From positions 52,348 to 116,347 of the forward strand of contig PUQB01000154.1 of NCBI GenBank assembly GCA_003024785.1: a stretch of DNA of 64,000 nucleotides, read 5' to 3'. The translations under genes and the position numbers were made by a program. This document shows positions 4,701 to 36,689 of the stretch, one piece after another. Source of the stretch: Selaginella tamariscina (Eukaryota; Streptophyta; Lycopodiopsida; Selaginellales; Selaginellaceae). The notes beneath the pieces are model-generated. The model saw only the letters and a list, made by a program, of their open reading frames with translations. It made no database searches and was not told where the DNA came from. Every line of letters begins with the position of its first letter. Position 1 is the stretch's first letter.

Positions 4701-5098
4701 TGTACCTTTCGACTGCTTTAACCAATCACATCCCAGAATGATGTCAAAGACCTGGGAAGGGACAACCCTAAGAGACCCAGAGGGAAACTTACAGTTGGCA
4801 CCCATAACCAGTAGTCGAAGTGGTGTACTGTGATACTGCACGAGACTGCCCATTACCATATAAAATGTGCAAGACCTTATCTGCTCGTCTCAAGGGTAAT
4901 GAGCACCGATGCGCCAGAGAAGTAGTTATGGAAGACATACTAGATCCTGTATCCACAAGTACTGTGACTGAAACATCATTCACTCGTGCAGAAAATGTGA
5001 AAACTGGATGATTTGGTGGAACTTGCAACCCTTGATATGCATAGCGGAAAAAACATGGAGGTGGAGTTTCCATCGCACGGGATCCCTCCGTCGCCCGT
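1749..5098 (-). pseudogene. Gypsy copy 1 pol (protease, RT, RNase H, integrase), frame-broken
   Basis: Reading from 5098 downward, the protease has VLVDTGSS (near 4960). The reverse transcriptase has KLDLASGYWQVPM, MPFGLTSAPATF and FIDDVLI in place of the usual YIDD. RNase H carries VDASDVGIGGVL. The integrase has a GHLGHQRVLEKLRRSFYWP zinc region, then AVDLMGPFP, SDNGPAF and GLVERLNRTF of the DDE core. The reading frame changes near 4050, 3100 and 2740, where zinc-region and core segments are joined out of frame. The C-terminus (DGPAHTAARGG) stops at 1749-1751, directly against the LTR, so the polypurine tract lies inside the coding sequence. Identity as gypsy pol is certain; activity is not expected. 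Confidence 0.88.
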
Positions 5099-16639: not shown

Positions 16640-16790
16640 AAACCAAGGCAACTAGCTCAGTGGTAGAGCACTTGGCACCGGCGTGAAACTTGTCCAACCT
16701 CAATTTTTCAACATGGTATTAGAGCCTAGGGGACGTGGAGCCTCAGTTTTTCAACATGGTACCAGAGCCTAGGGGACGTGGGGCTAGAGT
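16640..16790 (+). other. tRNA A-box-like sequence followed by two initiator-tRNA PBS-like motifs
   Basis: AACTAGCTCAGTGGTAGAGC (16649-16668) is a good tRNA/SINE A-box context. Downstream, TGGTATTAGAGCC and TGGTACCAGAGCC resemble the TGGTATCAGAGC primer-binding site of plant LTR retrotransposons; each is followed by TAGGGGACGTGG, making a tandem duplication of about 40 bp. There is no B box in good form and no cloverleaf. It is best read as a SINE or LTR-element remnant. Confidence 0.4.
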
Positions 16791-17014
16791 TGGATTGGCT
16801 GGACAGGTTAACAAGAAAACTGTTCATTATCTTGTTCATCCTCATCATTCTCATAATCCTCGTTATCTTGTTCATCCTCCTGGTCATCTCGTAATCTTCA
16901 TTATCTTGTTCACCCTCTTGGTCATTTGCTTCATTGTTGTCCTCGTTCACTTCAGAATACATTACATTCCCAACACTCCCACTCAGGAATACATAATATT
17001 CCCAATACTCTCAC

Positions 17015-17775
17015 TCAAGCTGAGTTGGACTTCTGCACGCCAAGAGCTTGTGCATGTCGCATAAACACTGCTGGTGGAAGTGCCTTCGTGAATATGTCCA
17101 CCACCATCTCCACAATGTCATAGTAGATGAGTTCCACTTTCTACATTGCAACCTGTTCTTTTGTCGTACAATGAAATCTTGGATTCTTCGTTAGAGCAAT
17201 GGCTCTCTAATTGTTGCAATGCAAGACCATTGCTTCTCCTTGCTCATAGCTCAAACCGTTGAGCAAAGTCCTGAGCCAAAAAATTTCCTTGGCTGCTTGT
17301 GCCATCCCAATATACTCGGCCTCGATGCTCAAGAGTGCCACGATCGGCTGCCACTAGCTACTCCACATGATTGCTGCACTATCTAGGTTGAAGATGTAGC
17401 CAGAAGTTGATTTATGCTGATCAACTTCCCTTGCCTAGTCCACATCCAAGAATCCTTATAGCTTGAGTTGAGGCTACTTTTGTTTTGTGTAACACAAACA
17501 TGATCGGTTGTCCCCTTCAAGTAATGAAACACTCTCTTAACTGCTTGCCAATGCTGGAAGCCAAGATTTGCCAAAAACTGCAACACCACTCCCGCAATGT
17601 CCAGCTTGGTACAAACCATGAGGTAGACCAAATTGCTAACCATCTGCTAGAACAGAATCCTCTGCATCACATCTTTTTTTGCTTCCGTTTGGGGTGCCAT
17701 GTCCTTGCTGAGATGCAAGCCAACTTCCATTGGCATTGATGTAGAGTTGACATCGCTAAGCTTGAACTTTTGGAG
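17015..17775 (-). pseudogene. Copia pol 3' part (RT end and RNase H)
   Basis: Recognisable copia blocks are YLMVCTKLDIAGVV and HWQAVKRVFHYLKGTTDH (17643-17470), then the C-terminal DIFTKALPPAVF...HAQALGVQKSNSA before a TGA at 17015-17017. The frame is broken in several places, with stops between 17100 and 17380. Confidence 0.8.
17767..17775. repeat. Left 9-bp target-site duplication (CTTTTGGAG)
   Basis: This copy of CTTTTGGAG directly precedes the MULE terminus. The identical 9-mer directly follows the right terminus at 25972-25980. Nine bp is the usual Mutator-superfamily duplication length. Confidence 0.88.
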
Positions 17776-17812
17776 GGGTCTCGACGAAAAGGAGGCTCGG
17801 CTCAGGAGGCTC
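17776..17812. repeat. MULE left terminal inverted repeat
   Basis: The terminal about 35 bp pair with the reverse complement of 25935-25971. Shared blocks are TCG at bases 6-8, GGAGGCT at 16-22 and CAGGAGGC near base 30. Confidence 0.8.
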
Positions 17813-17936
17813 ATATTATTCTAGTATATTATGGATATTCCAGAATATTCTAGATATATCAGAATATTCTAGAATATATAATATGCCGACTGGCTTAAAT
17901 ATGCCGACTGGCTTAATAAAGCATTTTATAAACCAT

Positions 17937-20900
17937 TTATCCTTGTAGCACCGGTGGGTCATGAACTCTGCTGCAATTCACCAGCAAACGGTGGACCTCC
18001 ATCTCACTGAGCGATCGCCTTTGTAGAAAATATGTGACGTCCGGGTTCAAGCCAAGCACACGGCTATAGACGAAGTACATGTGTACACATGGGCTCCAAC
18101 TTTTGCTCTTCTGAAAGGTAGAACAACTGCATATAGGATAAGTATTAATAGTCACCTTTGCAGAGTCATTTCCTGCCGACACAACGAAAGCCTCCTTCCG
18201 TCCTCTACTGTCACTTCAACATTTCTCACACGACCTAAAAACGTCTTGGCCTTGGAAATTCTTCTCTTGTTCCTTAGACATTTTTGTTGGAGTCCGGACC
18301 ATACGTCCTTCGAAAGGTGGAATTGTTGTAGATCCAGCTCCACGTGGTGGCGATGGTGTTTTGTCCTTCTGACCCTCATCTACTCTTCCTGCCATCCCCT
18401 GTAAACCTTCCAGAACAAAGCCTGCATCCTGTAGTTCTCTGACCTCCTCACTTGTCAGCTTCGTTTCCTTGAGCACAGGCCAAACCGTTGGTGGTGTTGG
18501 AATTCGTGACGAAGAATTTTGCCGTTTGGCCGCGTGAAACACCCTGAATCTTTTGGGCAGAACCACATCATCTGTTGTACATACTCCTCATTCCCCAAGG
18601 CATCAATGTACATTCGTTTTCCATAGAATCCTGGTGCTGGCACTCTGCTTGGATAACCGATTGGTTTTCCACACAGAGCAGTTCCTTCCTGATTCATCCC
18701 CAAACACTTAACCTTACTGGATGCTCCGATTCGTCTGATGGCCCACTCTGTTTGAGCAATCTCTCTCTCCAAAACCTCTTCGAACCTTAACCTCTTTCTC
18801 CTGTTGTTTTGGACCACCCGCTCTGTGTACTCTACATCATGTCTGTGTGAACGTCGAGCATCAGACTGTTCTGTTCCTGTGACTGTTCTCCTAACAGTTT
18901 GCACTCGAACGTTAGTGGTACTCGTGAACTCCGGGCTGGTCAAGTGTTCCTCGCCTTCCACCAGATTGATAATTGTTGATGGAGATACACTTTTCCCCTC
19001 AGAGAGTTTGCGTTGCACTCGTTTCAACAGAGTTTCCTTCGAAGGCCCTGACCCTGTATACCTCCCTTCTATTGCCGCTTTCACCTTCGCACTCTGCATA
19101 ACTGCATCGGTGAGGTCTAACATTGTCGCCTCCAGCAGTGGTACTCTTTTGGCCAATCTTGCTCTTCTTGCTCTCGCATGAATCACTTCAGCATTGTTTG
19201 TAGTTGGAACGCTCGCGAGTCCTTCTTCTGTCATGTCTCCCAGTTCCGCCATGGAGATGTGGTCCTCATGCCTGATCCACCAAGACAGCCATGTCTTCAA
19301 AGCTCGAATGTTTGACGCTCGTCCTTCCCAAAAAGACTCGAGAATTGCCAGTTGTTCTTTCTTAGATTGTTCATTCAGTGCTGCAGGCCAGGCACGAGCA
19401 AGCTTCATGTGTTCTTCGCGATGTTCTTCTGCGATCCATTTCTTTGTCACCTGACGCACGGATTGCATAAAGTGAAACAGACAGCTTCTTTCCCTCCCTT
19501 TCATCTTTGCTCCGTTGTTGAATACTTGGCGCAAGGCTATCCATATCGCTCCAGCCTCATCCGACATGAAACCAGCAAAGTTGACATTCTCCAAACCCTG
19601 CTTCTTACAAACCTCTAGCATTGTGTTCAAGAACTTCAGCACTGCAACATTATCTTCGCGGCACATATCTGCGTAAGCTATAGTCACCATGGATCTGACA
19701 CTGCAAGAGAGCGTTAGATAACGAAGATTAGAAAGTGTTATGAAGAGTTTTACAACTTACAATGGGTCATAAAGGTGTATTCCAATTGTCGCCCAGTCTG
19801 GTATGCGGTGCGTGTGGTCCAGAACAACCCATTGATCATGAAGGTCTCCTCACTTTGACACCTTTGATGTAGTCAACTCCTGAACCCGGTCCCTCAACTG
19901 TCATTTTGAAGATCAGAGGCTGCTCCTCAGCACCATACAGTTCCATCCCTGAAACATGTATGACGTGAATGAAAGGTATTGGCAACTTTGTCTTCAGCTC
20001 CAGAAGACCCTCGTAACCCTCTCTAAAGTGTGTCTCCTTCTGTCTTGATTGTGTAATCCAGTCCCGAGTCCTAAAGAAAGGTCACGTCAGTGTGTAGAGA
20101 TCTAAAGAAAAATACCTTCGATGGTTTGTTAGAGGTTCAAGTTTTGAGAGTAAACCAGTGTACGAGACTTCTCCTTCTTCCTTGAAAAGTTCTTCAAAGA
20201 TGAGCTCACGCAGCTTGAAACTCAATCACTCGTTGATTGGTTCGCGGACTGCTCTTTACCACGTTGCTGACACTAGATCTGGCTCGCTGAACGTTTGAAG
20301 CTGACACTGAGGGGCTGACTGGATGCTGATGAACACCTCTGTGAATGAACAACCTTGTAAAAGAAATGTCGTCTGGCAGAATGTAGTACACATAAGCCGG
20401 ACAAGTGTGCACTAGCAATGGCTCCTCTCCACAATGCTTACATTTCATGCCTATTACTTTGCCTGTCTCAGTTGTCTTTGCCTTCTCCACAGCACCCTTG
20501 AAGTGACATTCATTTGCTTTCTTCTCAAAAGCCAAGTAGGGGCAGGTAGGATTGATGCATTTGAGATGTCCGACACATGAACTTCGACTGACTCGCGCCG
20601 GAACATGCCAGTGTGTTGTGCTCGGGTGTGTCCAATGGTAGCAGCCATCCTTGCGATTCATCCCCAAGTACTTCTCTGTGCTTTCTTTCTTTGGGGAAGT
20701 TCGTAAATGACATTTCCATTGTATATCTGCGGTAGTTCAGAGACTCGTTTAACTTCAGACGAACCAATGAGATCCTTCCCTATCCTACATTTGTCTGCTC
20801 TTAGAAGACACACCAGCATGGATTCCTCACGCTCCTTTGTCCGCAACCTGAACAACGGGCCCTTTGGGCACAATGTGTAAAAGACAAACTGGTTTGATGC

Positions 20901-21089
20901 ATTGCCTTCTGGTAACAACTCCACATCTTCTCCAGAACTCGCAGAAACTGACATCAATTGAACCACATGTATACTGAACCAACAAGGAATGTTGAAAGCA
21001 AAGTGAAGATCATGTTCAAACACAAAAGCATTTCCATCTTCATCGACTGGGAAATCTTTGTCAATGCCTTCATAGGTAACTCTGGCCAT
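17937..21089 (-). pseudogene. MULE transposase (zinc-binding N-terminus, DDE core, SWIM finger), lightly frame-broken
   Basis: The product would cut and join the transposon ends. The start at 21089 (MARVTYEGIDKDFPVDEDG) opens exon 1 (20116-21089). Exon 1 holds a Cys/His region (GHLKCINPTCPYL, CKHCGEEPLLVHTC, HRGVHQHP), perhaps a WRKY/GCM-type finger. A 45-bp intron (20071-20115) and a 60-bp intron (19701-19760) follow. The DDE core shows VVLDHTHRIPDW for the first Asp, FAGFMSDEAGAIW for the second Asp with CLFHFMQSVRQ after it, and TNNAEVIHA for the Glu. The C-terminus has CSCSTFQKSKSWSPCVH (about 18120), a CXC...CXH SWIM motif, ending at 17937. Single-base frame breaks fall near 20665, 19850, 18460 and 18200. 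All catalytic residues remain visible, so decay is recent or partly assembly error. Confidence 0.82.
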
Positions 21090-21515
21090 GACAACGCAAG
21101 GAGAAAGCTCGGTGGTTTAGGAAAGCAAAGCAAAAGATTAAACACACTCTCGTTCGCCAAAAAAAATTATAATCGTTGATAATAAACGTGAATACACTTT
21201 TGTATATAATTAATTCTACGCTGCCCAGCTCACAGTGTTCTTAATGCTGTCCTCTCTAGTATCACCGATTTAATTTAATTACCTTTTATGATTTGAAATA
21301 TCTTCACTTTACCAATTATTCACATATTTTAATAAACCCTAAATATTAATGTCACATTTATTCCGTAGGTTCACTTTTTCATTGCGGCTAGGGTTTTTGG
21401 TTAGGGTTTACTTTTCCACTGCGGCTAGGGTTTTTTGGTAGATGGTTTACTGTTTCCACTGCGGCTAGAGGTTTTTTCAATCTCAGATCTGAGTTCTGTC
21501 TTCCACTTGAGGCGG

Positions 21516-22500
21516 CGCCATCCATTTCGAGTCAATTCGTTGTAGCGCCCAAGTAATCATCGAGATTTCTGTGCCGATTTAGATTGTCGGCACCATCCTT
21601 CAGTCGGCGGCCACAAGGTATGTGCAATTTCTTATTTTTAATTTGTGGCTCAAATAATTTTTTTTCAGAGATAAAGGGTCTTCCCATTTGTGCCGACTGA
21701 GAGCGGCACCATCCTTGGTTCAGTCGGCAGCCACAAGGTATTTTCGATTTGTTATTTTTTTTTCTTTGCGGCTCAAGTATCCGTATCACAATGTTTTTTT
21801 TTTCAGAGTTAATGTGTCTTCCCATGTGTGTCGGAATCCTAGAGATAAAGGGTCTTCATTTGTGCCGAAGAGTGACGGCACCATCCTGGTTCAGTCGGCA
21901 GCCACAAGGTATTTTCGATTTGTTTATTTTTTCTTTGCGGCTCAAGTATCCGTATCACAATTTTTTTTTGTCAGAGTTAATGTGTCTTCCCATGTGTGTC
22001 GGAATCCTAGAGATAAAGGGTCTTCTCATTTGTGCCGACTAAGAGTGACGGCACCATCCTGGTTCAGCCGGCAGCCACAAGGTATTTTCGATTTGTTTAT
22101 TTTTTTCTTTGCGGCTCAAGTATCCGTATCACAATGTTTTTTTTGTCAGAGTTAATGTGTCTTCCCATTTGTGTCGGAATCCCAGAGATAAAGGGTCTTC
22201 CCATTTGTGCCGACTGAGAGTGACGGCACCATCCTGGTTCAGTTGGCAACCACAAGGTATTTTGAATTTGTTTATTTTTTGCTTTGCAGCTCAAGTATTT
22301 CTTTTTTCAGAGTTAATGGGTCTTCCCATTTGTGCCGTCTGAGAGGGACAGCACCATCCTAGCTCAGCCAGCACCATTATCTCTTCAGTGCCGTCTGAGA
22401 GGGTCGGCACCAACTATCTCAGTCGGCAGGATTTTGTTCTTCTACATCTCTGTGCCGACTGAGAGGGTCGGCACCATCTAGCTTGAGTCGGCAGCCACAA
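21516..22500. repeat. Tandem array of 173-175-bp units between the divergent MULE genes
   Basis: The word CGGCACCATCC recurs at 21703, 21876, 22049 and 22224, giving a period of 173-175 bp; shorter partial units lie before (about 21587) and after (about 22350, 22400, 22465). Each full unit has GTCGGCAGCCACAAG|GTATTTTCG, then a T-rich run, then TTTCAG|AG, so each looks like a donor, a roughly 80-bp intron and an acceptor. GTGCCGACTGAGAG...GTCGGCAC forms an 8-bp stem hairpin. The position suggests a repeated 5'-leader or promoter region for one or both genes. Confidence 0.85.
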
Positions 22501-22579
22501 GGTTAGTCATCTTTGCTTTTTATTTTCATTTTGTCTCCTAATCAATTGACTTGTGTGTTTGCTTTCCAAAGTTTACAAA

Positions 22580-25500
22580 ATGGTGAGAGCTTCAAAAACG
22601 TCTACTAGAGACTGTGCCTGATGAAGAGCCACGGGAAGAGGAGGATATCGAAGCACAAGCGAGGAAAGAGAGGAGAACCATCTAATGTAGCAAAGGAGGA
22701 TCCTCCAATGACTCAGTCTAAAGTAGTACCAGTTGAGCAGGAGCAGCCTCCATCAACCATCACAGATTTCCCAGAGAGCTCGTCGCATTGCCTCCTTCAT
22801 CCGCTGAGGTTGCAGTCCTGAACGAGCAAGTGCAGATGACAGAGGCAGTTGAAGCTAGCGAGGACGACTTGGAGGAGGCAGTCAGCAAAAAGAGAGGCCG
22901 CGGGAAAGCTGATCCAAAAGGCAAGAAGGCGAAGAGCGATAAGGAGCCGAAGGAGTTATACAGCATACCGGCTAGCCTGCATTTGGAGAGCTCAGCGAAC
23001 CTGCTCGACAAAATTACTATCAAGGGACTTGGTGATCCTCCTGATGTGCCCATCTGTAGAATGCATTCGAACGAGGTGGTTCGACGAGTGAACCCAGGGG
23101 ACTTGGACAGGCTGGTGTCATCGTTGAAGAAGGCTGGTTATCTACGCAACACGGCCTTGTTCATTCTGTCCATCGGAGATCGACTCACTGCTGAGGAGCT
23201 ATCGGAGCTGTCGAAGGACACATTCAGTACGAGCAGCACCGGTCTTTCGAGCAAGCTCTTACTCAGCCGGAGTACAAACAGTGGGCTTCAAGGCTCTCAA
23301 ACAGGAAGTTCAGCTGCTGGGACGGGAACCATAGGCTACAGGCTTTGCAGAAGCTGTACCGAGGAGGATGCAGAGGACAACCAGCGATGGGCTATTTGCG
23401 TTCGATCGAGTTTCATCTCCACGGAGAACCTCGACAATCTTCAACTGGTTTCGATGTTCCAATCGATTAACATGTGAGTATTTTCTTTTCTTTTTGTTAA
23501 GAGTCTAGACTTACAGTTTCATTGAACAGATCTTCAGCAACATCTGTGGAAACAACGCTACCACATATTCTCCTCGCTGTAAAGGCGGTCTGCACTAGTA
23601 CCGAAGGAACTCAGAAAATCCTCGAGTCACTCACGGAGGTTGATCGTCTTGAGGTGCGGAAGTGGAAGGAGAGTTCAACAGGAAAGACGGCTTGGCATCC
23701 TCTTCCGAACCTGATCTGCAAAGATCCTTTTCAAGGTAACCTCCGATTTGATTTATAGGAAAGAAGTTTTTAACTTATTCTATGTGCAGAACGAGATCGA
23801 CGATGATCTCGACAGAGCAGTCACCAGTGCTAAGGGCAATCCACAGTTGAGCTGAACCTGAAAGCAGCTAGTGTACAAGAAGCATGACAAGCGTATGCAC
23901 AAGTTCCTCTCCATCATAGACCCAGACTTGGGGGAGGAGTGGTTCCAGAAGGTGACGAAATCTCTCATAAGCAGTGTCGCTGGATGGGCATTGAGAAGCT
24001 GTATGCGATGTCAAAGGCGAAGATTCAAACATGCTGCGACTCCGATACTTGAACAAGCTCACCCGTCTCGAATCCAAGGCAGAACAACAGACACTTGGGC
24101 TACCAGGCATGCAGGACAAAGAGTGGATCAAGTGGTTCACCTTGGACTTATATTGGAAGGCTGTGCGCGAGGAAGCCATTCAGATCCTTAAGGGGTTGCG
24201 AGAGGATGGTGAAGAAGTTGGAACGGATGTCGACTTCATGAGCTGGTTTGACGAGATGGAACTCGGAGCAAGTGCCTGGTCTTTCAGCCCTTCCATGACT
24301 GCATACGGTTCACTTATTCGATGGAGCCGAATGAGTTTCTGGAGCGTGAGGAGTCTGCGCGTCGGATGATATGGAGGTAAGCTTTCATTCCAGCATTGCT
24401 ACTGTCTGACTTTGTGTTACAGGTTCATACTGGCGAAGAAAATGGCACACGTCTCAGACGATGAAGCTGTGGACAGATCATACAAGCGAGCCTCACATGT
24501 GGTCGAAGAGCAGAGGAGCTCTAACACCGTTCGAACGGGAGCATGTTCCATTCTGGCTCGACTGTCCGTCGCAACAGCCACCAGCTTGGGAGAGCTCACT
24601 ATTCGACGTGCACGGCAATGATCTACCAGCGATTGTTTGGGAGCCGGACGAAGTAGAGGCTATCAAGAAGAGCAAGATGAAGAAGACGGTGCGGAAGACA
24701 ACTACACCTGCAAAGGGATCGGGAGCGGGACCAAGCTCTTCTACAGCACCTCCGCCGGCAATCGACTTTACAATCAATGAGGTGCAGCCACTTGTAGCTG
24801 TTTGGACATCAAGGACGACCTGATGACCTTCATCCCGACCCTGGCTGCATCCCGTGGATCCTACGACCTAGCTGTGTGCGATATGGAGGAGATGAGCAGG
24901 TCTTTCTTCGAGCCGGTGCTTCCCAGACAGAGGTGTACACCAAGCTCCGACAACAGGTTGACAGACTACATACGGTGAGTCACAAACGGTGTTCCAGGAA
25001 GTGGTAGGTGAATACGGCTTCAACCTCATCATCCTCGACTTGCCCAATGAGCTTGTATATGGAGGTGCTAGCATCAACAAGGACATTGTGCAGCTAGATC
25101 CGGTGAAGTTTGAGGAGGCCTTGCAGTTCAGTGGAATGCACTTGGCAGCGAGTGGTTTCATGGTCGTCTTCGCGAGTTCTCCTTCTGTTTCGGCGGTGAT
25201 TCAGGCGGCTGCGTAATCAACTTGGAGGTTGCAGGACTTACAGCGTCTACCGTGCACGAGGCTGGGGATACCGTGACAAAATTAAGGTAAGCTAGCTATT
25301 CAAGTTCAAGTTTAACTTGGTCTATGTGGCAGGATAACTTGTTAGTTCTCTTGGTGCTGCAAAGCTCTGAGAAGAAAAGACCAAACCCTCTGGCGTTGAC
25401 GAACACGATCCTCGTCGACACTGCCGACCGTTTTCAGGAGGCTTGGTAAGGAAGTACTTTGCTTTGTTTATCCTAATGGAAGTTTGTGCAGGATGATGAT

Positions 25501-25738
25501 TCAACCGAAGAGTGTTCGACTCATGCAGCTTTTGATCGAGCGTCTCAGTAGACCTGGCGACCTAGTCTGGGATATTGGTTCCGGAACCGGATCATCATTG
25601 TTAGCTGCCGTCGAGCTCGGAAGGAATATTATAGGAACCGAGAAGAGTTTCGAACTCTCTAGGTTGGCAACAAACAAGCTCGCAGAGAACATTAGACCAG
25701 AGGAATTACCTACTCAAACACCTCCACGTCCAAGCTAG
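22580..25738 (+). pseudogene. Cargo gene: ParB-like domain plus beta-class DNA N4/N6 methyltransferase, intron-containing, frame-broken
   Basis: The ATG at 22580 has a good context (ACAAAATGG). A charged, Lys-rich leader (KKRGRGKADPKGKKAK) may be a nuclear signal. A ParB-like domain follows: DVPICRMHSNEVVRR and LDRLVSSLKKAGYL (23035-23150), then WDGNHRLQAL (23318-23347). After about 1.6 kb of unassigned sequence comes LIILDLPNELVYGG, the place of motif IV (25037-25048 DLPN; family DPPY or SPPY). Then QPKSVRLMQLLI (motif X) and VWDIGSGTGSSLLAAVELGRNIIGTE (shortened: DIGSGTGSS, 25571-25597), motif I. Order IV-X-I is beta-class. Five GT-AG introns fit: 23474-23530, 23736-23790, 24377-24422, 25287-25332 and 25446-25491. 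Frame breaks near 22620, 22700, 23225, 24010, 24820 and 24975 weaken it. It may be one fusion gene or two. Confidence 0.72.
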
Positions 25739-25934
25739 TGGTGGTTCGAGAACTGCAGCTTTACTTAAGATGAAGAAGAAACTTTAGCTAATGTATATTG
25801 AGTAATAAATTAAGCTAATATAAAAAAAAATAAGATAAAATACAACAGTTTTACTAGAATTCTTTTTTGCCGACTGAGGCCAATACTGCCGACCAGAAAA
25901 ATATTCTAAAATATTCTAGAATATTCGAGCCCAG

Positions 25935-25971
25935 GCCTCCTGGGCCCCAAGCCTCCAAAATGGCGACACTC
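25935..25971. repeat. MULE right terminal inverted repeat
   Basis: Reverse complement begins GAGTGTCGCCATTTTGGAGG and matches the left end with a few mismatches and one small gap. Confidence 0.8.
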
Positions 25972-25980
25972 CTTTTGGAG
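25972..25980. repeat. Right 9-bp target-site duplication (CTTTTGGAG)
   Basis: Identical to 17767-17775. The copia reading frame resumes directly after it on the minus strand. Confidence 0.88.
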
Positions 25981-28890
25981 GAGTTCTTTGATGTACTTAT
26001 TTTGAGACATTTCCAATGTTCCCTCCTCCTATCTATGAAGATCTGGATCCCAAGACAATACTTGATGCTCCCAAGGTTCACCATCTTAAATCTTGAACTA
26101 AGATCTTTCTTGAGTTGATGAATCAGCTTCTCATTTTTGCTAAGGAGCAAGTAATTGTCCACGTACAAAGCTAACAGCACCAGGAGAGTTCCACTCGCTT
26201 GATGTACACGTTAGTGCCCGTTAGTGTCTGCAGAGAGACTCTTGAAGCCAAGGGCAAGAAGAAATGAATTCATCTTTGCGTACCAGGCACAAGGCAATTG
26301 CTTCAGGCTATAGAGGGCCTGCACACCAAGTGCTCTCAACCTTTGGCAACAAATCCAGCTAGTTGCTCGATATAGACTTCCTCCTCCAAGTTGCCATTCA
26401 AGAACGCTATAGTCATGTCCATGTGCTTGACCTTCATGTCTTCTTGAGCTGCTAAGTTGTAGAGAAGTTGAATCAATGCGAGCTTCATCACTGTGGAGAA
26501 AGTCTCGTAGAAGTCAGACTCCTTCGACTTGTGAGAATCCTCTCGCAACGAATCTGACTTTGTAGTGCATGTCTCCATCAAGTCCCGTCTTGAGCTGCAA
26601 AGGAACTTGGTTTTTATCACCTTCCTCCCAGGTGGTAGCTCCACGAGGTCCCAAGTCTAATTTTCTATTAACGAGTTGTACTCAACTTGTCAAGCAACAC
26701 GTCACTAATCCACATTACCTCTAGCAAGAGCTTCTTCCATGGTCTTCGGGACAAGTGCATCTCGTCCATGATTGAAAAGGAATAGAAGCTTGTACTCGTC
26801 ATGCTCCCCTTCTCCCTCCATGCAGGAGTAGGCAAATAGAAAGCGGGGTTGTAGGAAGTCTCAGGAATTGGCACTATAACTTATCTTTCTCTAGTAGCTT
26901 GGCAAGAAGCCCATTTGGCTTCTTGCAAATCCAGTTGCTCCCTATATTGGCACCCAGCCTCTGTGAGCACTTGCTCATGGCTTGAACATTGTAAACCTCC
27001 CTCACTATTTTCAGACCTGGCCTTGCCACTAGCACGTTCACAACCTTGGTCTGCTGCTGTTACTGGGGTTTGCTGCCCTAGCACTCCCACTAGATCCAAC
27101 ACCTCTTGTGTCGAGTGGCAATCCTTCTGCTTCATGGGGCAAGTCCTCACTCCATCCAGCACCATCCTTGCTTACTGCATTGTCCTCATTGCTCTTGGAT
27201 CATCCTAGTTGCCACCTCCATTCTCATTGCCAGCTTCTCTAGCTCTACCTAGCGTGATTACACATGCCCTAACTAGAAATTCGTTGTCACTTTCTTCCCA
27301 GTCATCCTCAGCTACTTCCATTAAAGAAAACTATGGCAGTGGCTGGAGATCTCTTGTCATGTACGTCTTGGGCTCATCACAGATGACATCCCTGCTCACG
27401 ATCATTTTCTAAGTCTCGAAGTTAAAGAGCTTGTAGCCCTTCATGGTGTCTACATATCCAATATTAAGGACACACTTCTGACTAGTGCTAACGAGCTTAT
27501 CTATGTATTTTTTAAGCACATGCGCATAACAAATGCTCTCAAAAACATGTAGATGGTCACATCTGGTTTTACATCATACCACACTTCATATGGGGTCTTC
27601 CCTAGCACATCTGTTGTAATTTGGCAGTTAAGCAAGTAAGTTGTCGTGGCAATAACCTCACACCAAAAGGAATTTGGTAGGCCTGAGTCTTGTAAGAGAG
27701 TTCGTGCTGCCTCTTGGAGTGTGTGATTCATCGCTCTACTACACCGTTTTGCTGCTGTGTATCAAGAATTGAGAATTACCTTTGTATTCTAGAGGATTTA
27801 CAAAAACTAGCAAATTCATTGGATGTATACTCTGTGCCTGTATCACTTTTCATTGTATTTCTTGAATTTTTCGAAGGCTTCTGACTTGAGCTATAGGAAT
27901 TTCACTATGACGATTCATAAGAAATCATCAATGAAGATCACGAAGTATAGCTTCTTGTCTCTAAAAAGTGTGGCCATGTTTCTAAAACATCAAAATGAAT
28001 CAATGCTAAAGTTTCCTTAGCACAATTAGTGGCTATTTGTGGAAAAAAGAAGCTGGTGATGTTTACTAAGTGCACAAGACTCGCAAAATTTCATCACACT
28101 TCATGAGGTGATGCTTAGACCTTTACTATCGCTTTTGCCACTAGTTCTTTGACATCCTGCAAGTTTGTGTGGTTGAGTCTCCTATGCCATATTTGGGGTT
28201 CTACTACTTTCTTTGTCCCCGCAAAAAGAGCTTTTGCTAGCCGCATCACCTCAACATTAAGACCGGCATGTCTTCTCCCACAAACTATTCCATTTTTATT
28301 CGTGTTCATGATTGCACACATCCTCTTCATGAAGGTGATCTCCAAATCACTATCAGCTATCTTCCTATAGAGAAGAGCGTCTTGTTCACTCCAGGAACAT
28401 AATAAACATTCTTGACACTTGCAATTTATCTTGTTGGCAACTTAATGTCAATTGTGCCAACTCCTCCACCTTGTAGGAATAATCGTCATCGAGAAAAATT
28501 CTCCTATGTCCTAGAACCTTTTTCAACGTGGTGAAAATTCTCTGAGGTGTGTCATGTGTTTGGTCGCCCCAAAATCAAGGTACACAACTTCTGTTGTTGT
28601 GTCAAGAGTGTTCTTTGGGACCTGCTGGGTACACCAGGCCATGAACAAGCTGCCATGGTCATCCATGTCCTTATGGTCGTCATCTCTTCTACTTTCTACT
28701 ATGCTAGCAAGTTGGCCGACTTCTTCTTGCTTGCCGCCAATCTCTTTGCCTTAGTTTTTTTGCCTCCTTTGCTTTCTTGGCATCTCTGTCTGTGCAATCT
28801 CTTGCCCAGTGTCCTAGTTTCTTGCAGATGTTGTAGAGATCATTCTTCTTTTTCTGTAAATTCAAAAATTAAGACTAACTTAATTTACCT
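25981..28890 (-). pseudogene. Copia gag tail, integrase and RT 5' part
   Basis: The gag knuckle near 28860-28790 reads YNICKKLGHWARDC, so the first zinc-binding Cys is replaced by Tyr. The gag-pre-integrase domain has WHRRLNHTNLQDVKELV (about 28190). Integrase C-terminal blocks include NHTLQEAARTLL and PYEVWYDVKPDV (27730-27560). RT blocks are MDMTIAFLNGNLEEEVYIEQ (26430-26370, first residues MDMTIAFLNG) and YVDNYLLL (about 26165), where the catalytic YVDD has become YVDN. Stops and shifts lie between these islands. The element cannot be active. Confidence 0.8.
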
Positions 28891-29604
28891 TTATCTTAGG
28901 TACAATAAAATTAAATTATTGCTAATAAATTTTAGTTTTATATAAACTTTATTTTAGAATTTATATAAATATAACATATTTAAAATATAAATATGTAAAT
29001 ATGTTATATGCTTTAACATGTGGAGACTTCCTATCTGTTTTTATTCACATACATATAATAAAGACTGAAGAATTTAAATGATGAATATTTACTGCCCACA
29101 TAATTTAAATTAACTATGAAACATAGAGTTCTCAAGGACCTTGTGTACAATTTAATTATAATATAATTTATATTTAATTTAAGAGATATTGATGTCATTC
29201 ATAGATGGGTGATAATTAAATATGAATTTGTATTCAATCTTCAATAATTAAATAAGCACTTAATAATTTTTAAATCTTGTGATTTAATCATTCATAGATA
29301 CTTTATTTTATTATTTCGAAAAATGGATAATAAACCACTTATGAAAATTATTTTAAAATCCTTATATATTAGTTGCTGTCTTATATCGTTTTGGGGTGGA
29401 ATAAATAATTATAACACACACACACATATAGAGAGAGAGAGATGGATGGTATTATATAACAACCTAAATATAAATGGATCATATTATGGAACTATAATAA
29501 ATCTAAAGTCAAAAATATAATAATCAATACATAATTTAGAATATATAAATACACAAATCCAAACAAATATAATTTCATCTATTTTATTTATAAGCTTTAT
29601 TTTA

Positions 29605-30450
29605 TATATTTTAGTGTTCAAATGAAATGAAGAACATTAAATCATATTAATGTAGAATTTTTATGATTGAGAATATTAAATCAGGTACAATTTAAATAAA
29701 TTATATTGTTTCTTAAACTTCCTAAATAAAATTTCACTTAAATACATTATATATATATATGTAGAAACAAAATATATAACAATGAAATGAACTTAAAATT
29801 AATTTTTATAAAATTTGTATGTAATAGGTTTAGTTTTAAAATGAGAACATTTGTTCAAATAATTATAATAAAAACATAAATTTAAATGTTTGTGATTTTT
29901 AATGATAATAGTTAAAATGACAAATATGAGAATATATGATAGTTTTGAAATTTTTATATAAAAATTAAAAGAATAAAACAAAATCAAAATAAACAATATG
30001 AATATAGAATCTCATATTGAATACTACTATTAAATGTATTTAGTTAAATACATAATCATATATAGGATATTAATATTAAATATATATAGAATAAGAATAT
30101 TTAATTATTAGAGTAACTTATTAAAATTCTCATATTTGCCATTTTAACTATCAATATTAGAAATCATAAACATTTAAATTTACATTCTTTATTATAATTA
30201 TTTGGACAAATATTTCTCCTTTTAAAATTTAAATTTACTACATGAAAATTTTATATTAATTAATTTTAAGCTTATTTCCTTGTACTTACTTACATATATA
30301 TATGAAATTTTATTTATGTAAAATTTGTTTAAGAATTCTAAGAAATGATATAATTTTATTTAAATTGTACTTGATTTAATATTCTTAATCATTTAAATTC
30401 TTATATTAGTATGATTTAATATTCTTCACTTCATTGTTAAATTTATTTCT
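29605..30450. repeat. Long inverted repeat (about 340-bp arms, about 170-bp spacer)
   Basis: The left arm (about 29605-29950) pairs with the reverse complement of about 30120-30450. Paired blocks include CATTTTAACTAT, CATTTAAATTTA and ATTATAATTATTTG in the right arm, and GATTTAAT.TTCTTCA near the outer ends. Identity is imperfect, with small indels. It could be a fold-back element. Confidence 0.72.
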
Positions 30451-30734
30451 ATACATATACACACATATAATTGTATATAAGTAAAATTTTATTTAACAAA
30501 TGATTTAATATCTTATAAATTGTATTTCAAAATGATATAATTTATAATTCTAAGAATCTTAGAAAATTGTATTTAAGAAATGATATAAACTTATTTAAAT
30601 TATACCAAATTTAGTACTCTTAAATCATTTATATTTAAGAATCTTATAAAATTGTATTTAAGAAATAATTTAAGAATCTTTAACTAATTAAAAACTAAAT
30701 ACTTTAAGAATATTTAAGAAATAATTATTATTTA

Positions 30735-30970
30735 GTTAGCTAAACAATAGTGTACAATTAGAATAACTTCTAATTTTATTTTCTTTTCTTTTTAATATAT
30801 CATTAGTTTTTAGTATAATGTGTATTTAGGTTTAGATTATGAAATATGATATATATAAATTTAAACAAGTGTGTATATTAAATTTGATACATAAATTAAT
30901 TATGAACCTAATAATAAATCATTTAAAAAATATATTATTTAAATCATTAAGAAAATAATTTATTTATATT
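30735..30970. repeat. Direct repeat copy 1 (partner at 33770-34000)
   Basis: Both copies begin GCTAAACAATAG.GTACAAT and share GTGTGTATATTAAATTTGAT and AAATTAATTATGAAC. They run in the same orientation for about 235 bp with scattered differences. Confidence 0.75.
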
Positions 30971-32040
30971 TTCTGGGATTTGACTTCTCTTTCAAGATCA
31001 TCCTATGTTGATTAAAGTTGTTTTGGTTATAAAACATTTTAAATCATCATTAAAATCATAAATTTTTTTATGATTTCCGATCTTTAAATATACTGGTGTA
31101 GTTTCAAATCTCATTTTTTCTTCGATGATGAAATGAAATAAATTTGATTAATAAAAGATATTCAAATATATTCTTTTATTTGTCACGTGACTTATTCTAT
31201 AATATTTTATTTATTACGAACCTTTTGAAATTGTTAACAAAGGTCAATAAAACCATTTTATATACTCTAATAACGTTATGTAAAGAGTCTAATACGCATT
31301 TTAATTATATTATTAAGTGTTTTACATGTGCAAATTTTGTGATTGTGATTAATTGTTAATGTTGAATCACTTAAAAACAATTAAAAAAAAATTATAATCA
31401 ACTCTTATCAACACAAGGTTTATACCAAATATGGATTATGAATTGATTTTAATGAACCTAATTAAATTAATATGATATAAGTTCATTAGTTTGTTATAAT
31501 GTTATTCTTTTAAGTTTGTTTATTTTAAAACAAATTATTATAAACTTACATTAATAAGTTTTATTAAACTTCACAGCCATCTCCTTTATATTTAAAATGT
31601 AATTTTCTTTTGTTTTAACATTTGCTTTTATAATTTAAAAGACTTGTAGGATATAAAAGATATATTTTTCTTTTTTTTAATATTTTTTTCATAATTTAAA
31701 AAGGCTATTGTAGGATATAAAGATGTATTTTTTAATTTTCTTATATTTTCTTTTCATAATTTCAAAGGTTGTTGTAAAATAATAATTCAATTTAATTTTA
31801 ATTCCAACAAACTCTGTTATTAAAGAAAATGTATAAGTCTTGTGCCTTTAACTAATTATGTTAAAATTACACAAAATAATATTAAAAGTCATTGTTGTTT
31901 TAATAATAACATTTGTCACAACTAATTACAATGTTCAACTTATACAATATAATAAAAATAATATTCAAAGTAATAAGTTTTTTCACAGTCAATTAAAATT
32001 AAAATAATAAAAAACAGAATCTTTAACAATCATAATTTTA
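30960..32040. repeat. Diverged direct copy of the 46086-46680 segment
   Basis: Shared blocks in the same order include TTTTTATGATTTCCGAT, TATATTCTTTTATT, GTTAAAATTACACAAAATAAT and TAATTACAATGTTCAA. The 46-kb copy begins inside the minus-strand gene ending near 46212, so this copy contains a decayed trace of that gene's 5' exon at about 30970-31090. Confidence 0.65.
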
Positions 32041-32730
32041 CACCTGATTGGTCAATCATGTCATTATTTTTTTTATAATCTTAATTTTCTATTTATATAG
32101 TTTGATAAATAAAAATCTTCTAAACATAAAATATTCTAATTACTTTTAGAGAAAAAAAGAAAGATTTATTATTATTTTATTTTGAACAATAAGTTACATA
32201 ACATAATCCAAACAATAGTAATATATTGATAAAATCTAAAACTTTAAATGCTTTACAACTATTATAATATATATCCTATAATACCTAAATAAAGTATATT
32301 TATATTTATAAATTATCTCGGTTTTGATTTAACGGGAAATCTTTTTAAAGACTATCCAAAAAGAATATTTAGGAATCTCTCCTAACATTTTTAAGTTTTT
32401 TGAACCATAATGCACACCGTTGCTGGCCACATCAATATTATAATAATTATGGTTATTATTATTAATTATATATGATATATTGTCAGATCAGGGATTGAAC
32501 TTCTAAACATAAATTTTTCCAGTTAGTTCAAAAAGACAGAGATTTATAAAAGCTTCTGATAATTAAAACAATAATAAATATATTTATAAATCAACATTTT
32601 TAATTCCTTACAACTATTACAATTTATAAATTACATGTCTAGTACTTTAATAAAAGCTAATTATATATTTCTATTAGTACTGTTGTTGGGCTTAATTATT
32701 TGATATTAATTAATTAAAACCCTGAAATAT
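32040..32730. repeat. AT-rich dispersed repeat, inverted relative to 47090-47600 and 48250-48640
   Basis: Blocks such as ACTGTTGTTGGGCTTAATTA, AAGCTAATTATATATTTC and AACATAATCCAAACAATAGT occur here and, reverse-complemented, at 47 kb; GGAATCTCT and TTGGTCAATCAT pair with the 48-kb copy. No terminal inverted repeats or coding sequence are clear. Confidence 0.65.
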
Positions 32731-33029
32731 CCACTATCGTTACGATTATCGGGCCACAATGTCAAAGATAAACATATACATATGTCGGATATGAATAGAC
32801 ACGTCATTGAAAATACACAAGGATGATTAACGTGTAAGCTTACCGGAAACGCATCGTCTTCCACTCCAACTGCAATGAGATAATAATAACCATATCAAGA
32901 TCATTATAGTGTATAAATGTGTATATTCATCAAACGTGCATACACATACATACACATATGCACATGGATACATTCATTATAACTGTAATAGAAAAGAATT
33001 CTTGTATGCAAAAGGATACAAAAACATCA

Positions 33030-33540
33030 GAGTGATGTGATTATTGTGATTATGAGTTTCGTATGTATGCACCTTCGCACATATACATGTGGATACAACA
33101 TTTTGATAATCACTTGGTATAACTGGGATATAAATGGATTGTTACACCACAACACCATTTGATTAATGAACTTGTATAACAGTGGTAATAATGCGCATTT
33201 AATAACAACAAATAAATCATAACACACACACACACACACATATGTTTCGATTAATGACTTTGTACAACTGTATCTACAGAAACACGATAGACATAAAACA
33301 TCATATGTACATAGTGCATACATACGTACGTACGTACGTACACCCACACCATACAGTAACAAAGGTACGTCTGACTTTGATTAATATACATAGACATACA
33401 CCCCTATCCACATATATAACACACAACACATACACGTACATGATATAACAGATATATAAATAGATTATACAAGATATACATAAACATCATATTATCCGCA
33501 AGATGTGTTTCACACACGGACACACACGAATTATTGACTC
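33030..33540. repeat. Microsatellite-rich zone ((CA)n, (TACG)n)
   Basis: Includes a (CA)n run at 33223-33240 and a (TACG)n run at 33322-33341, among many TACATA/CACATA words. Open frames here are low-complexity artefacts. Confidence 0.7.
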
Positions 33541-33769
33541 GGAATGCAGAATGCCGTGTAGCCGTATATACCATGGATAATGAGAGATTAAAGCGGGATT
33601 ACGAGGATTAACACAAATTGTGTGGATTATAACAAGAAAAAGCATGAATTATGTCGATTCAAAGAAAGAATAGCATAGATTACGATAAAGAATACGAATC
33701 ATCAATCGAAAGAGTAGAACACAGCCATTCTTATCATACATGAAAAATGCAGAGATTGAAGCTAAACAA

Positions 33770-34000
33770 TAGCGTACAATTAAAATAACTTTTATGTTAT
33801 TTTATTTTCTTTTTAATATATATCATTAATTTTGGTATAATGTGTATTTAGATTTAAATTATAAATATGATATATATAAATTTAAATAAGTGTGTATATT
33901 AAATTTGATACAATAAATTAATTATGAACCAATAATAGATCATTTAAAAAACATATATCCAATCACTAAAGAAATAATTTTTATATTTTTTTGCATGAAT
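33770..34000. repeat. Direct repeat copy 2 (partner at 30735-30970)
   Basis: About 230 bp in the same orientation as the first copy, with scattered substitutions and small indels. Confidence 0.75.
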
Positions 34001-36689
34001 CATTAAATTTATCTCAGAAATGTGATAATATAAAAGTAATTTCAAGTTCATTTACGTATAATATTCATTTAATAAGTTATTCATTACAATGAATATAACA
34101 CTTAAAAAATGTATTTTTAATAAACTTAATAAAACATTAAATTGTTAATTACTTATCTTTACAATAAGTTTTCTAGAAATAATACTTTAGTCTAATGTTA
34201 TTATGAAGTTTTGAATTAGTTTTATATAATTTTTTTTTATTTACTACTTTAAAATTAATAATGCTTCATTTAAAATAATTTTCAGATATACAATCTATGT
34301 TAAAAAAAATCAACTTAAAAAACAAAAGGCATAAATATAAACTATCACTTTAATACTTACAAATTTTATTTAAACCCATTTTCTTTTAAAACACGTTATG
34401 ATAAACTTTTAAATATTTATTTATTTGCACTGATTTATAATACATTTACAAAAACATTACGATTTGTTATTATACTTTGCGGTTTTTAAAACATAATATT
34501 AACTTAGATTCTTCATTTCAATTAAATCTAAAAATTTTGTTATCTTGAAACTAAAAAAATAATTTTTTATTATATAACAAGTTAATTTAAATTCATTTAT
34601 TATAAACGTTATTTTCATTTTACAAAATATAAAACAATAATTAATAACACTTTTTAAACATTTATAAGATAACCTTTTATTTATCATTAAAACATATAAT
34701 ATCTTGGAGTTGAATATTAAAAAATAACATATTAACATTATTCATATTAAATTTTAAAGTGCAATTACTATAATCATTCATTATTTATTATTATTTATTT
34801 ATAAACATCTATATGCTTTTTATTTATATAATTCATTTGTTTTTTTATTTTACAAAAAAAAATTATGCCACAACATTTTGGCAGTTTGAACGGATTAGTT
34901 TTAATGCTGTGCAATTTTAATTATTTAAATAATATTAAATTTATTAACAATATATTCTTCATTTCATGAATTTTAAATATGTATGTAAAATAAAAATTAT
35001 TATAAATTTAAAATATATTAGTACTATTTTAATGTCAATGTCTAATATAAAACTACTTATGAAAACTACATATATTTGACTGACTTTATTGTAACAAATT
35101 TATTTTAAAAAATTTAAATTGTATATGTTTTAGTTTAAACTTATTTTAGAAGATAAAATTCTAAAAAACTAGAAACAAAGTCAACGGCGTTGATTATTTT
35201 TCTTTTTAAATATAATCAAATCCATTACAAAATATAGGCCATAACATAAAAATAGTATATTTAGAATCTAAAATATTTTTAAAATAATATTTTAGAATTT
35301 AAATACTTTTAGAATCCTCACAAATAGTATTAGAAATAGATTATATATTTAATTATGTTTTTTATACACACACATATATATGTATGTATATATGTGTTTC
35401 ATTCATGTATATTGTTAGAGTAGTATTTAGATCACATAAGAGTTGTAAGTTTCATGTATTTTTTGAAGAAATATATTGGGGAAAATACAAAAACAAGATA
35501 CATGGTGAATCGATGAAAAAAAATATAATTATGAGTAAAACCGTAGTATGGTGCATGTGGTGGAATATGCATGTGAACATGTAAGTGGAATTCATCAAAG
35601 GAGTAGTTATCATGGAGAGCGCATCATTCTTAATACAAATGGTGGATCAATAGAAAGTATGACTAGTTGGCATAATTAAAGCAGTGTGCATTAACATTGT
35701 GCAAATTAAATATAAGGTGTTCTTAGTTGTATTACTATGGATTGGCCACAAAAATCAACCTTATTGAATCTTGTTAAGTGGGCGTGGTTGCAAGATGTGA
35801 ATGTACGACATAATTAAGAATAATGATGAAATGACACTGTATAAGAACAGGTAAGAAACTATTATGAAGACACAACAGAAATTATAGATTGAGCAACCAA
35901 TGCAACCCTTAGGAATAAAGGATTATGACTGACATTACAATTTAAATATGGAAGAAAAATAAATATTAATCGATATTAATCTGGATTTGTCAGAGATTGC
36001 ACAAGCTGATTTATATCAAATGACACAAAAAAATGAGTAACAGCAAGATGTGAAAAGATAAAAATGAGATCATGTATATGATTGACGAACTATAATAGCA
36101 ACACATAAAAGCCCTTGGATTAAACATACAAGTTCAAACAACCATACGAGCAATAAATTAAAGTATGACAAAGAGACAAAACAACTAATACGAACTAAAC
36201 ACTATTGGAGATTATGAGTAACAAAAAGACAGAAGAAATAAAAATTAAAAAAAAAAACAAAGTCCACGTAAAATTGGAATTATAATGGACCAGAACTAGA
36301 GTACCAAACAAAAGTATAACGATGAAATGCAAATGTATTTGCATAAGTTATGAAGATTTGAAATGAGTTCTAGCAACAATTTGCTCTCACCAAATAGAAT
36401 TGTTACCTCAAGCAACAATAAGCATATAGAATGAATCCTACATTCCTAGCGAAGGTGAAGGAAGAAGTGGATTGGTATATTCAATCGAGAAACATAATGG
36501 TTATCACCAATAATTATTATTCCAAAAAAATGGAACAACTAGTGCTACGTTTGAACTATATTACATAATTGCTGAAATATTGTACAAACAAGGAAGTAAC
36601 AAAGTATTAAGAATATGCATATTGGAAAAAGAAGTAAAAATGATATTACAATGAGTACATTTGACACTTTGTAGGTACATTATAGCATG

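What the first reader, a model, noticed from the sequence alone, without database searches (positions are those of the whole stretch)
22580..25738. A MULE transposon carries a ParB-like plus DNA N4/N6 methyltransferase gene
Seen: the gene lies wholly inside an element bounded by terminal inverted repeats and an exact 9-bp target duplication. It encodes a ParB-like WDGNHRLQAL motif upstream and beta-class methyltransferase motifs IV, X and I downstream. Known: ParB-methyltransferase fusions are a bacterial and phage architecture. Inference: the transposon captured a prokaryote-derived modification gene, added introns, and may have used it to mark or protect its own DNA or to alter host chromatin. 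I know of no such MULE.
Basis: partly seen in the sequence, partly recalled or inferred. Interest (0 to 1): 0.92.

Follow-up and report, generated by a model that had tools for sequence, protein, structure and literature searches.

The report
Jumping gene carrying a methyltransferase-like protein
A jumping gene found in many near-identical copies in one 300-million-base genome carries, beside its likely transposase gene, a second gene whose protein ends in a domain related to bacterial DNA methyltransferases and begins with a predicted ParB-like DNA-binding part, so the element would be able to tag or shield its own DNA at a palindrome that it repeats several times.

Summary
Confirmed: an 8,196-bp DNA transposon (window 17776-25971) sits in a Ty1/copia element, has imperfect inverted ends and an exact 9-bp target duplication, and its plus-strand gene ends in an N6_N4_Mtase domain (PF01555, E 1.1e-9). 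In the host genome (300.7 Mb, unnamed) all 40 scored places of the gene's last part, the window included, are 98-100% identical (530 candidates). Of 21 sequences (20 fetched copies, chosen by this gene, plus the window) 17 cover both genes. Not confirmed: no profile finds ParB; only the motif layout (DGNHRLQAL) supports it. Methylation is doubtful: motif IV reads DLPN, not [DNS]PP[YFW], in 21 of 21. New here: palindromes of the GTGCCGAC-N7-GTCGGCAC type repeat between the two divergent genes (2-9 per copy; chance 0-0.05), and the half-site TGCCGAC lies inside both ends (right 21 of 21, left 13 of 14). Already in print: ParB-methyltransferase genes in algal transposons (Ectocarpus Sola1-1). I found none in a MULE. 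Best reading: an accessory protein predicted to bind the element's own palindromes and mark or shield it, as VANC does for Arabidopsis VANDAL MULEs.

The parts
17767..17775 (.). left copy of the 9-bp target-site duplication CTTTTGGAG
   Evidence: offsets
25972..25980 (.). right copy of the 9-bp target-site duplication
17776..25971 (.). whole transposon, 8,196 bp
   Evidence: similar ends and own duplications in other copies
17776..17835 (+). left terminal inverted repeat, imperfect (GGGTCTCGACGAAAAGGAGGCTCGG...)
   Evidence: alignment score 50, best of 2,000 shuffles 43
25912..25971 (-). right terminal inverted repeat, imperfect (GAGTGTCGCCATTTTGGAGGCTTGG... on the minus strand)
17884..17908 (+). 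two TGCCGAC half-sites about 110-130 bp inside the left end
   Evidence: left end in 13 of 14 sequences whose left end was located
25868..25893 (+). two TGCCGAC half-sites about 85-104 bp inside the right end
   Evidence: right end in 21 of 21 sequences
17940..21116 (-). likely transposase gene (MULE-like): N-terminal zinc-binding-like region, D...D...CxxH...TTNNAE order, C-terminal SWIM-like CxC..CxH; about five frameshifts in this copy; two short introns can be read
   Evidence: relative P0001 E 8.8e-36; SWIM below cut-off; no Pfam MULE match
18458..19756 (-). longest open stretch of the transposase gene, 433 aa
21366..22510 (.). region between the two divergent genes, built largely of tandem repeats (175-bp unit x 3.7 at 21666-22298)
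21571..22474 (.). seven palindromes with arms GTGCCG and CGGCAC, commonest full form GTGCCGAC-N7-GTCGGCAC (starts 21571, 21690, 21862, 22032, 22207, 22388, 22452)
   Evidence: 2-9 per sequence in 21 of 21 against 0-0.05 in shuffles
22580..25738 (+). accessory gene: predicted ParB-like front, unknown middle, N4/N6-methyltransferase-related end; about ten frameshifts in this copy, five short GT-AG introns read
   Evidence: other copies hold open exons for the same parts
23046..23473 (+). predicted ParB-like region; motif DGNHRLQAL at 23321-23347
   Evidence: open in one frame in copy L038; WDGNHR codons in 19 of 21; pattern in 2 of 50,000 shuffles; no profile match
25037..25048 (+). motif IV position, reads D-L-P-N in place of D-P-P-Y
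   Evidence: alignment; same codons in 21 of 21 sequences
25505..25669 (+). PF01555 match: motifs X and I (IQPKSVRLMQLLIERLSRPGDLVWDIGSGTG)
   Evidence: E 1.1e-9; WDIGSGT codons in 21 of 21

Best explanation
A high-copy MULE-like transposon carries, opposite its likely transposase gene, an accessory gene whose protein ends in an N4/N6-methyltransferase-related domain and begins with a predicted ParB-like part, and this protein would likely bind palindromes repeated inside the element and mark or shield the element's own DNA. Shown: the element, its ends and target duplications, the methyltransferase-related domain, the near-identical copies, and the palindromes between the genes with half-sites inside both ends. 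Inferred: the family spread recently; the ParB-like part (or the transposase) reads the palindrome; the methyltransferase-related domain binds SAM through its kept motif I; it either methylates weakly or at another target, or has become a binding module, because motif IV is DLPN in every sequence seen; the outcome is that the element keeps its two promoters open or prepares its ends for transposition. The closest working model is VANC of the Arabidopsis VANDAL MULEs, a sequence-specific anti-silencing protein whose sites multiply as tandem repeats in the element's non-coding DNA.
For: PF01555 match E 1.1e-9, backed by PHROGs (best E 4.1e-11) and by tblastn to 86 phage records. Motifs IV, X and I line up in order with four phage ParB-methyltransferase fusions. 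Forty scored places, the window included, at 98-100% identity out of 530 candidates. Of 14 sequences with both ends located (13 copies and the window), 7 have an exact duplication of 9 bp or more, 3 have 9 bp with one mismatch and 1 has 8 bp exact. Palindromes in 21 of 21, chance 0-0.05. TGCCGAC 17 times in the window element against 0.62 expected. Half-sites inside the right end in 21 of 21 and the left end in 13 of 14. In six copies the region between the genes is longer with other filler, yet they hold 3-9 palindromes. Weak sign of coding constraint over four exons: pN/pS 0.46, p 0.015, 26 against 16 variants. A ParB plus N4/N6-methyltransferase gene opposite the transposase is described in Ectocarpus Sola1-1 (PMC12477816); VANC motif layout in PMC5735166.
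Against: No ParB profile match even in the open exon of copy L038; the phage ParB profile scored 0.6 bits while the best of 1,000 shuffles scored 6.9 and at least ten reached 2.5. Motif IV lacks the catalytic [DNS]PP[YFW] in 21 of 21. The ParB exon alone shows little constraint (6 nonsynonymous, 2 synonymous, pN/pS 0.85), and the middle exon holds 2 stop variants. No transcript, binding or modification data. The palindrome may be the transposase's site instead. I saw no fetched copy with the whole accessory gene open. The copies were picked by this gene, so its retention rate in the family is unknown.
Confidence: 0.5

Rival explanations
1. The palindromes and subterminal half-sites are binding sites of the transposase, and the methyltransferase-related gene is a passenger with no part in mobility.
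For: Half-sites lie about 83-173 bp inside the two ends, where transposases commonly bind (the general point is recalled). The frames are broken in the window copy.
Against: Most sites lie between the genes, not at the ends. The gene region is covered to at least 88% in 21 of 21 sequences, including L026, which keeps only 23% of the transposase region but has an exact 9-bp duplication; the choice by this gene biases that count.
Confidence: 0.3
2. Active DNA modification: the protein is a working 6mA or 4mC methyltransferase that marks the element.
For: PF01555 match with motif I kept in 21 of 21. A bacterial-type 4mC enzyme in bdelloid rotifers (PMC8885841, seen only in the listing and abstract start) and Dam-like enzymes in DIRS elements (PMC5890265, passages) show that such use exists.
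Against: DLPN in place of [DNS]PP[YFW] in 21 of 21.
Confidence: 0.15
3. A dead host gene fragment picked up by chance, as in Pack-MULEs.
For: Frameshifts in the window copy. Pack-MULEs are numerous in plant genomes (PMC6446971, passages).
Against: The same gene in 20 of 20 fetched copies, chosen by it, most of them with the transposase region too; open exons in other copies; pN/pS below 1 overall; a precedent for this protein type in algal transposons.
Confidence: 0.05

Closest known systems
Ectocarpus Sola1-1_Ec32 accessory protein (PMC12477816; section 5 read)
   Same: ParB-like plus N4/N6-methyltransferase protein, gene on the strand opposite the transposase of a DNA transposon; proposed there to bind and epigenetically modify its own transposon
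   Different: That element is a 21.5-kb Sola-1 in a brown alga and its protein has 1104 aa; here an 8.2-kb MULE-like element with 9-bp duplications. Sequence comparison was not possible (protein not held). No palindrome array is mentioned in section 5.
ParB-methyltransferase genes of green and red algal transposons (Iyer 2011; Petroll 2025)
   Same: Same protein type in transposons, as cited in PMC12477816
   Different: Neither paper is held, so details are unknown to me; host superfamilies may differ.
VANC proteins of Arabidopsis VANDAL MULEs (PMC5735166, passages)
   Same: MULE accessory protein; short motif massed in tandem repeats in intergenic and terminal non-coding DNA of the element
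   Different: In the passages seen VANC is not described as a ParB or methyltransferase protein; its motif YAGTATTAY is arrayed in one orientation, here the site is a palindrome.
Phage ParB-N6_N4 methyltransferase fusions (PMC12704722, passages; loci L001-L004)
   Same: Order ParB then beta-class methyltransferase; motifs IV, X and I align
   Different: The four phage ones have DPPY and about 90-aa ParB domains; here DLPN, a long middle region, introns, and about 45 extra residues inside the ParB-like part.
DNMT- and Dam-bearing retrotransposons (PMC5890265, passages)
   Same: Transposon with its own DNA methyltransferase
   Different: Cytosine-5 or Dam-like enzymes in retrotransposons, not an N4/N6 beta-class relative in a DNA transposon.

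Membership tests
Mutator-like elements (MULE/MuDR) | target duplication of 8-11 bp, often 9 (table in PMC6446971) | tested here: met
   of 14 sequences 7 exact at 9 bp or more, 3 more with one mismatch, 1 with 8 bp, 3 unclear
Mutator-like elements (MULE/MuDR) | terminal inverted repeats | tested here: met
   imperfect; above all of 2,000 shuffles
Mutator-like elements (MULE/MuDR) | transposase recognised by a MULE profile | tested here: not met
   no Pfam MULE match; hence called MULE-like, not filed as a firm member
Mutator-like elements (MULE/MuDR) | D-D-E order with CxxH and SWIM zinc finger | tested here: inconclusive
   residues read; second D, CxxH and E shared with P0001; motif order recalled; SWIM E 0.0029 to 0.01, below its cut-off; fold model unusable, pLDDT 35.7
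N6_N4 (beta-class) DNA methyltransferases | profile match over motifs X and I | tested here: met
   PF01555 E 1.1e-9, 39.1 bits against a cut-off of 26.7
N6_N4 (beta-class) DNA methyltransferases | motif IV [DNS]PP[YFW] (consensus recalled; DPPY in the four phage proteins) | tested here: not met
   DLPN, 21 of 21
N6_N4 (beta-class) DNA methyltransferases | methyl transfer to DNA | not testable with these tools
   needs protein or native long reads
ParB/sulfiredoxin domain | profile match | tested here: not met
   home-made profile
ParB/sulfiredoxin domain | G-x-H-R signature after an L..S(I/L)..xG helix (recalled) | tested here: inconclusive
   DGNHRLQAL present, 2 of 50,000 shuffles hold the pattern, pattern chosen after seeing the sequence; the helix PGDLDRLVSSLKKAGY aligns with P 0.018
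transposon-borne ParB-methyltransferase accessory proteins | both domains in one gene opposite the transposase, inside the transposon | tested here: inconclusive
   position and methyltransferase end met; ParB end only by motif

The most novel reading that the evidence does not exclude
A MULE has turned a phage-type ParB-methyltransferase into a self-recognition system: the ParB-like part clamps on parS-like palindromes repeated between its two promoters and on half-sites inside both ends, and the methyltransferase domain, no longer a catalyst of the normal kind, serves as a SAM-bound shield that keeps the element from being silenced. It would be a convergent counterpart of VANC.
Probability: 0.25. 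Interest if true: 0.85.

Novelty: new variant of a known kind. Interest (0 to 1): 0.6.

Why it matters
How transposons escape silencing is a long-standing question, and few element-encoded factors with a visible target site are known to me. This family offers a candidate protein together with a candidate site, in many near-identical copies of one genome, so binding and methylation can be tested directly. It also appears to extend the ParB-methyltransferase accessory type to a MULE-like superfamily, and suggests that the methyltransferase half may work without its usual catalytic motif.

Tried and rejected
Homologue searches with the conceptual protein gave none: the 7,991 candidates sharing most words (its last 34 residues were outside the scored region) and 3,871 candidates. 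Scans of viral contigs and of prokaryote contigs found no relative. A structure model of the transposase stretch was unusable (pLDDT 35.7). PDB searches gave nothing useful for the ParB-like part or for P0001 and 16 mostly weak matches, nearly all over motifs X and I, for the methyltransferase end (best MboIIA E 4.9e-4). Rfam: nothing in the window at gathering scores.

I first suspected base-calling noise as the cause of the frameshifts. Indels are many among 20 sequences (19 copies and the window, L026 left out): 170 private indel events in 3,386 columns (summed from its rows; events at the alignment's ragged ends included) against 42 substitution variants at 1,682 gap-free coding sites. But deleted columns are not enriched in homopolymers (43 of 372 against 340 of 3,283), so the cause stays open: assembly error or real decay.

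I could not count copies that have the transposase but lack this gene, nor look for other ParB or N6_N4 genes in the host genome: the whole-genome search answered once and was unreachable otherwise. Of the 39 other scored places I fetched 20; 19 were not fetched.

Full report
What is there. The finding lies inside a larger element. Window 17776-25971 (8,196 bp) is flanked by an exact 9-bp duplication, CTTTTGGAG. Its terminal 60 bp form imperfect inverted repeats that align better than all of 2,000 shuffles. It is inserted in a Ty1/copia reverse transcriptase gene (RVT_2 E 9.5e-10); when the element and one copy of the duplication are left out, a copia protein reads through the junction.

Two divergent genes. 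On the minus strand, 21116 down to about 17940, lies a likely transposase: a zinc-binding-like front, then D, D, CxxH and TTNNAE in that order, and a SWIM-like end (the motif order is recalled). No Pfam MULE profile matches. One relative scored among 5,320 candidates from 5.8 billion proteins: P0001, 27% identical over 91% (E 8.8e-36), which shares the second D, CxxH and the E and has a somewhat better but still sub-threshold SWIM match. I therefore call the element MULE-like. On the plus strand, 22580-25738, lies the gene of the finding, with five readable short GT-AG introns and about ten frameshifts in this copy.

The protein. Its end matches N6_N4_Mtase (PF01555, E 1.1e-9) over motifs X and I. 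PHROGs and phage tblastn agree, and motifs IV, X and I line up in order with four phage ParB-methyltransferase fusions. But motif IV reads DLPN where the family has [DNS]PP[YFW]; the codons are identical in 21 of 21 sequences, while motif I codons are kept in 21 of 21. SAM binding is therefore likely; ordinary N4/N6 catalysis is doubtful. The front shows a ParB-like layout (a helix LDRLVSSLKKAGY, later DGNHRLQAL), open in one frame in copy L038; WDGNHR codons are in 19 of 21. No profile supports it; a profile from 12 phage ParB domains scored 0.6 bits while the best of 1,000 shuffles scored 6.9. The DGNHR pattern occurs in 2 of 50,000 shuffles, but I chose it after seeing the sequence.

Copies. 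The window is part of an unnamed 300.7-Mb genome. Its last gene part has 530 candidate places, of which 40 were scored, the window among them, all at 98-100% identity. I fetched 20 of the 39 others, so all were chosen by this gene. Of 21 sequences with the window, 17 cover at least 80% of both gene regions. Both ends were located in 14: 7 have exact duplications of 9 bp or more, 3 have 9 bp with one mismatch, 1 has 8 bp exact, 3 are unclear (L023, L031, L035); L023 and L033 share their left flank and may be one locus. L026 keeps 23% of the transposase region and 88% of the accessory gene, with an exact 9-bp duplication. In 20 aligned sequences (L026 left out) mean substitution identity is 98.9% and indels are many, more often private than shared; different exons are open in different copies, but I saw no copy with the whole gene open. 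Over four exons variants are 26 nonsynonymous (2 of them stops) and 16 synonymous, pN/pS 0.46, p 0.015; by exon 0.85 (ParB-like), 0.49, 0.24 and 0. This is a weak sign of constraint, clearest in the methyltransferase part and not seen in the ParB-like exon.

Repeated palindromes. Between the genes lie tandem repeats that hold seven palindromes with arms GTGCCG and CGGCAC, commonest full form GTGCCGAC-N7-GTCGGCAC; TGCCGAC occurs 17 times in the element against 0.62 expected. All 21 sequences have 2-9 palindromes, chance 0-0.05. In six copies the region is longer and its filler different (that of L027 was read in full), yet they hold 3-9 palindromes. Half-sites lie inside the right end in 21 of 21 and the left end in 13 of 14. 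This is the layout expected of a binding site for an element-encoded protein.

How it likely works. The protein is predicted to bind the palindrome, through the ParB-like part, and so to mark or shield the element. VANC in Arabidopsis VANDAL MULEs is the nearest working parallel: it binds a 9-base motif massed in tandem repeats in intergenic and terminal non-coding DNA, and causes loss of DNA methylation there (PMC5735166, passages). The main rival is that the transposase binds these sites.

What is known. [quoted passage not shown] PMC12704722 (passages) lists phage ParB-N6_N4 fusions. MULE accessory genes in the passages seen of PMC6446971 include mudrB, mutB, vanB/vanC and SET; the word methyltransferase does not occur in its main text. 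Searches listed no MULE with this protein, as far as their capped listings (20 of 198, 20 of 69, 1 of 1, 10 of 11, 10 of 15, and none) show. So the kind is known; a MULE-like carrier, the palindrome layout and the DLPN motif appear to be new.

Noticed in passing
window 16700-17766 and 25981-27761, minus strand: A Ty1/copia element that received the insertion; near 16710-16760 there is a TGGTATTAGAGCC-like stretch that resembles a plant copia primer-binding site (resemblance recalled, not tested).
   Followed up: partly
window 6490-8288 and 11043-13278, minus strand: Two similar kinase-like gene copies with matching upstream parts, both broken by frameshifts (read by eye, no profile search).
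   Followed up: no
window 1850-4889 and 55816-56253, minus strand: Gypsy-like polyprotein cut into overlapping open frames (by eye); together with the other genes this suggests indel trouble throughout the assembly or general decay.
   Followed up: no
window 28001-36000: Very low G+C, 17-28% in 2-kb steps, next to gene-like stretches near 47%.
   Followed up: no
L024, L025, L027, L037, L038, L039: A structural subfamily: in the main matches listed it lacks element positions 2983-4323 (L025 and L037 also 1213-2246) and has a different, longer tandem-repeat filler between the genes.
   Followed up: partly
L026: A copy that lost most of the transposase region but keeps the accessory gene and has an exact 9-bp duplication; a candidate non-autonomous carrier.
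   Followed up: partly
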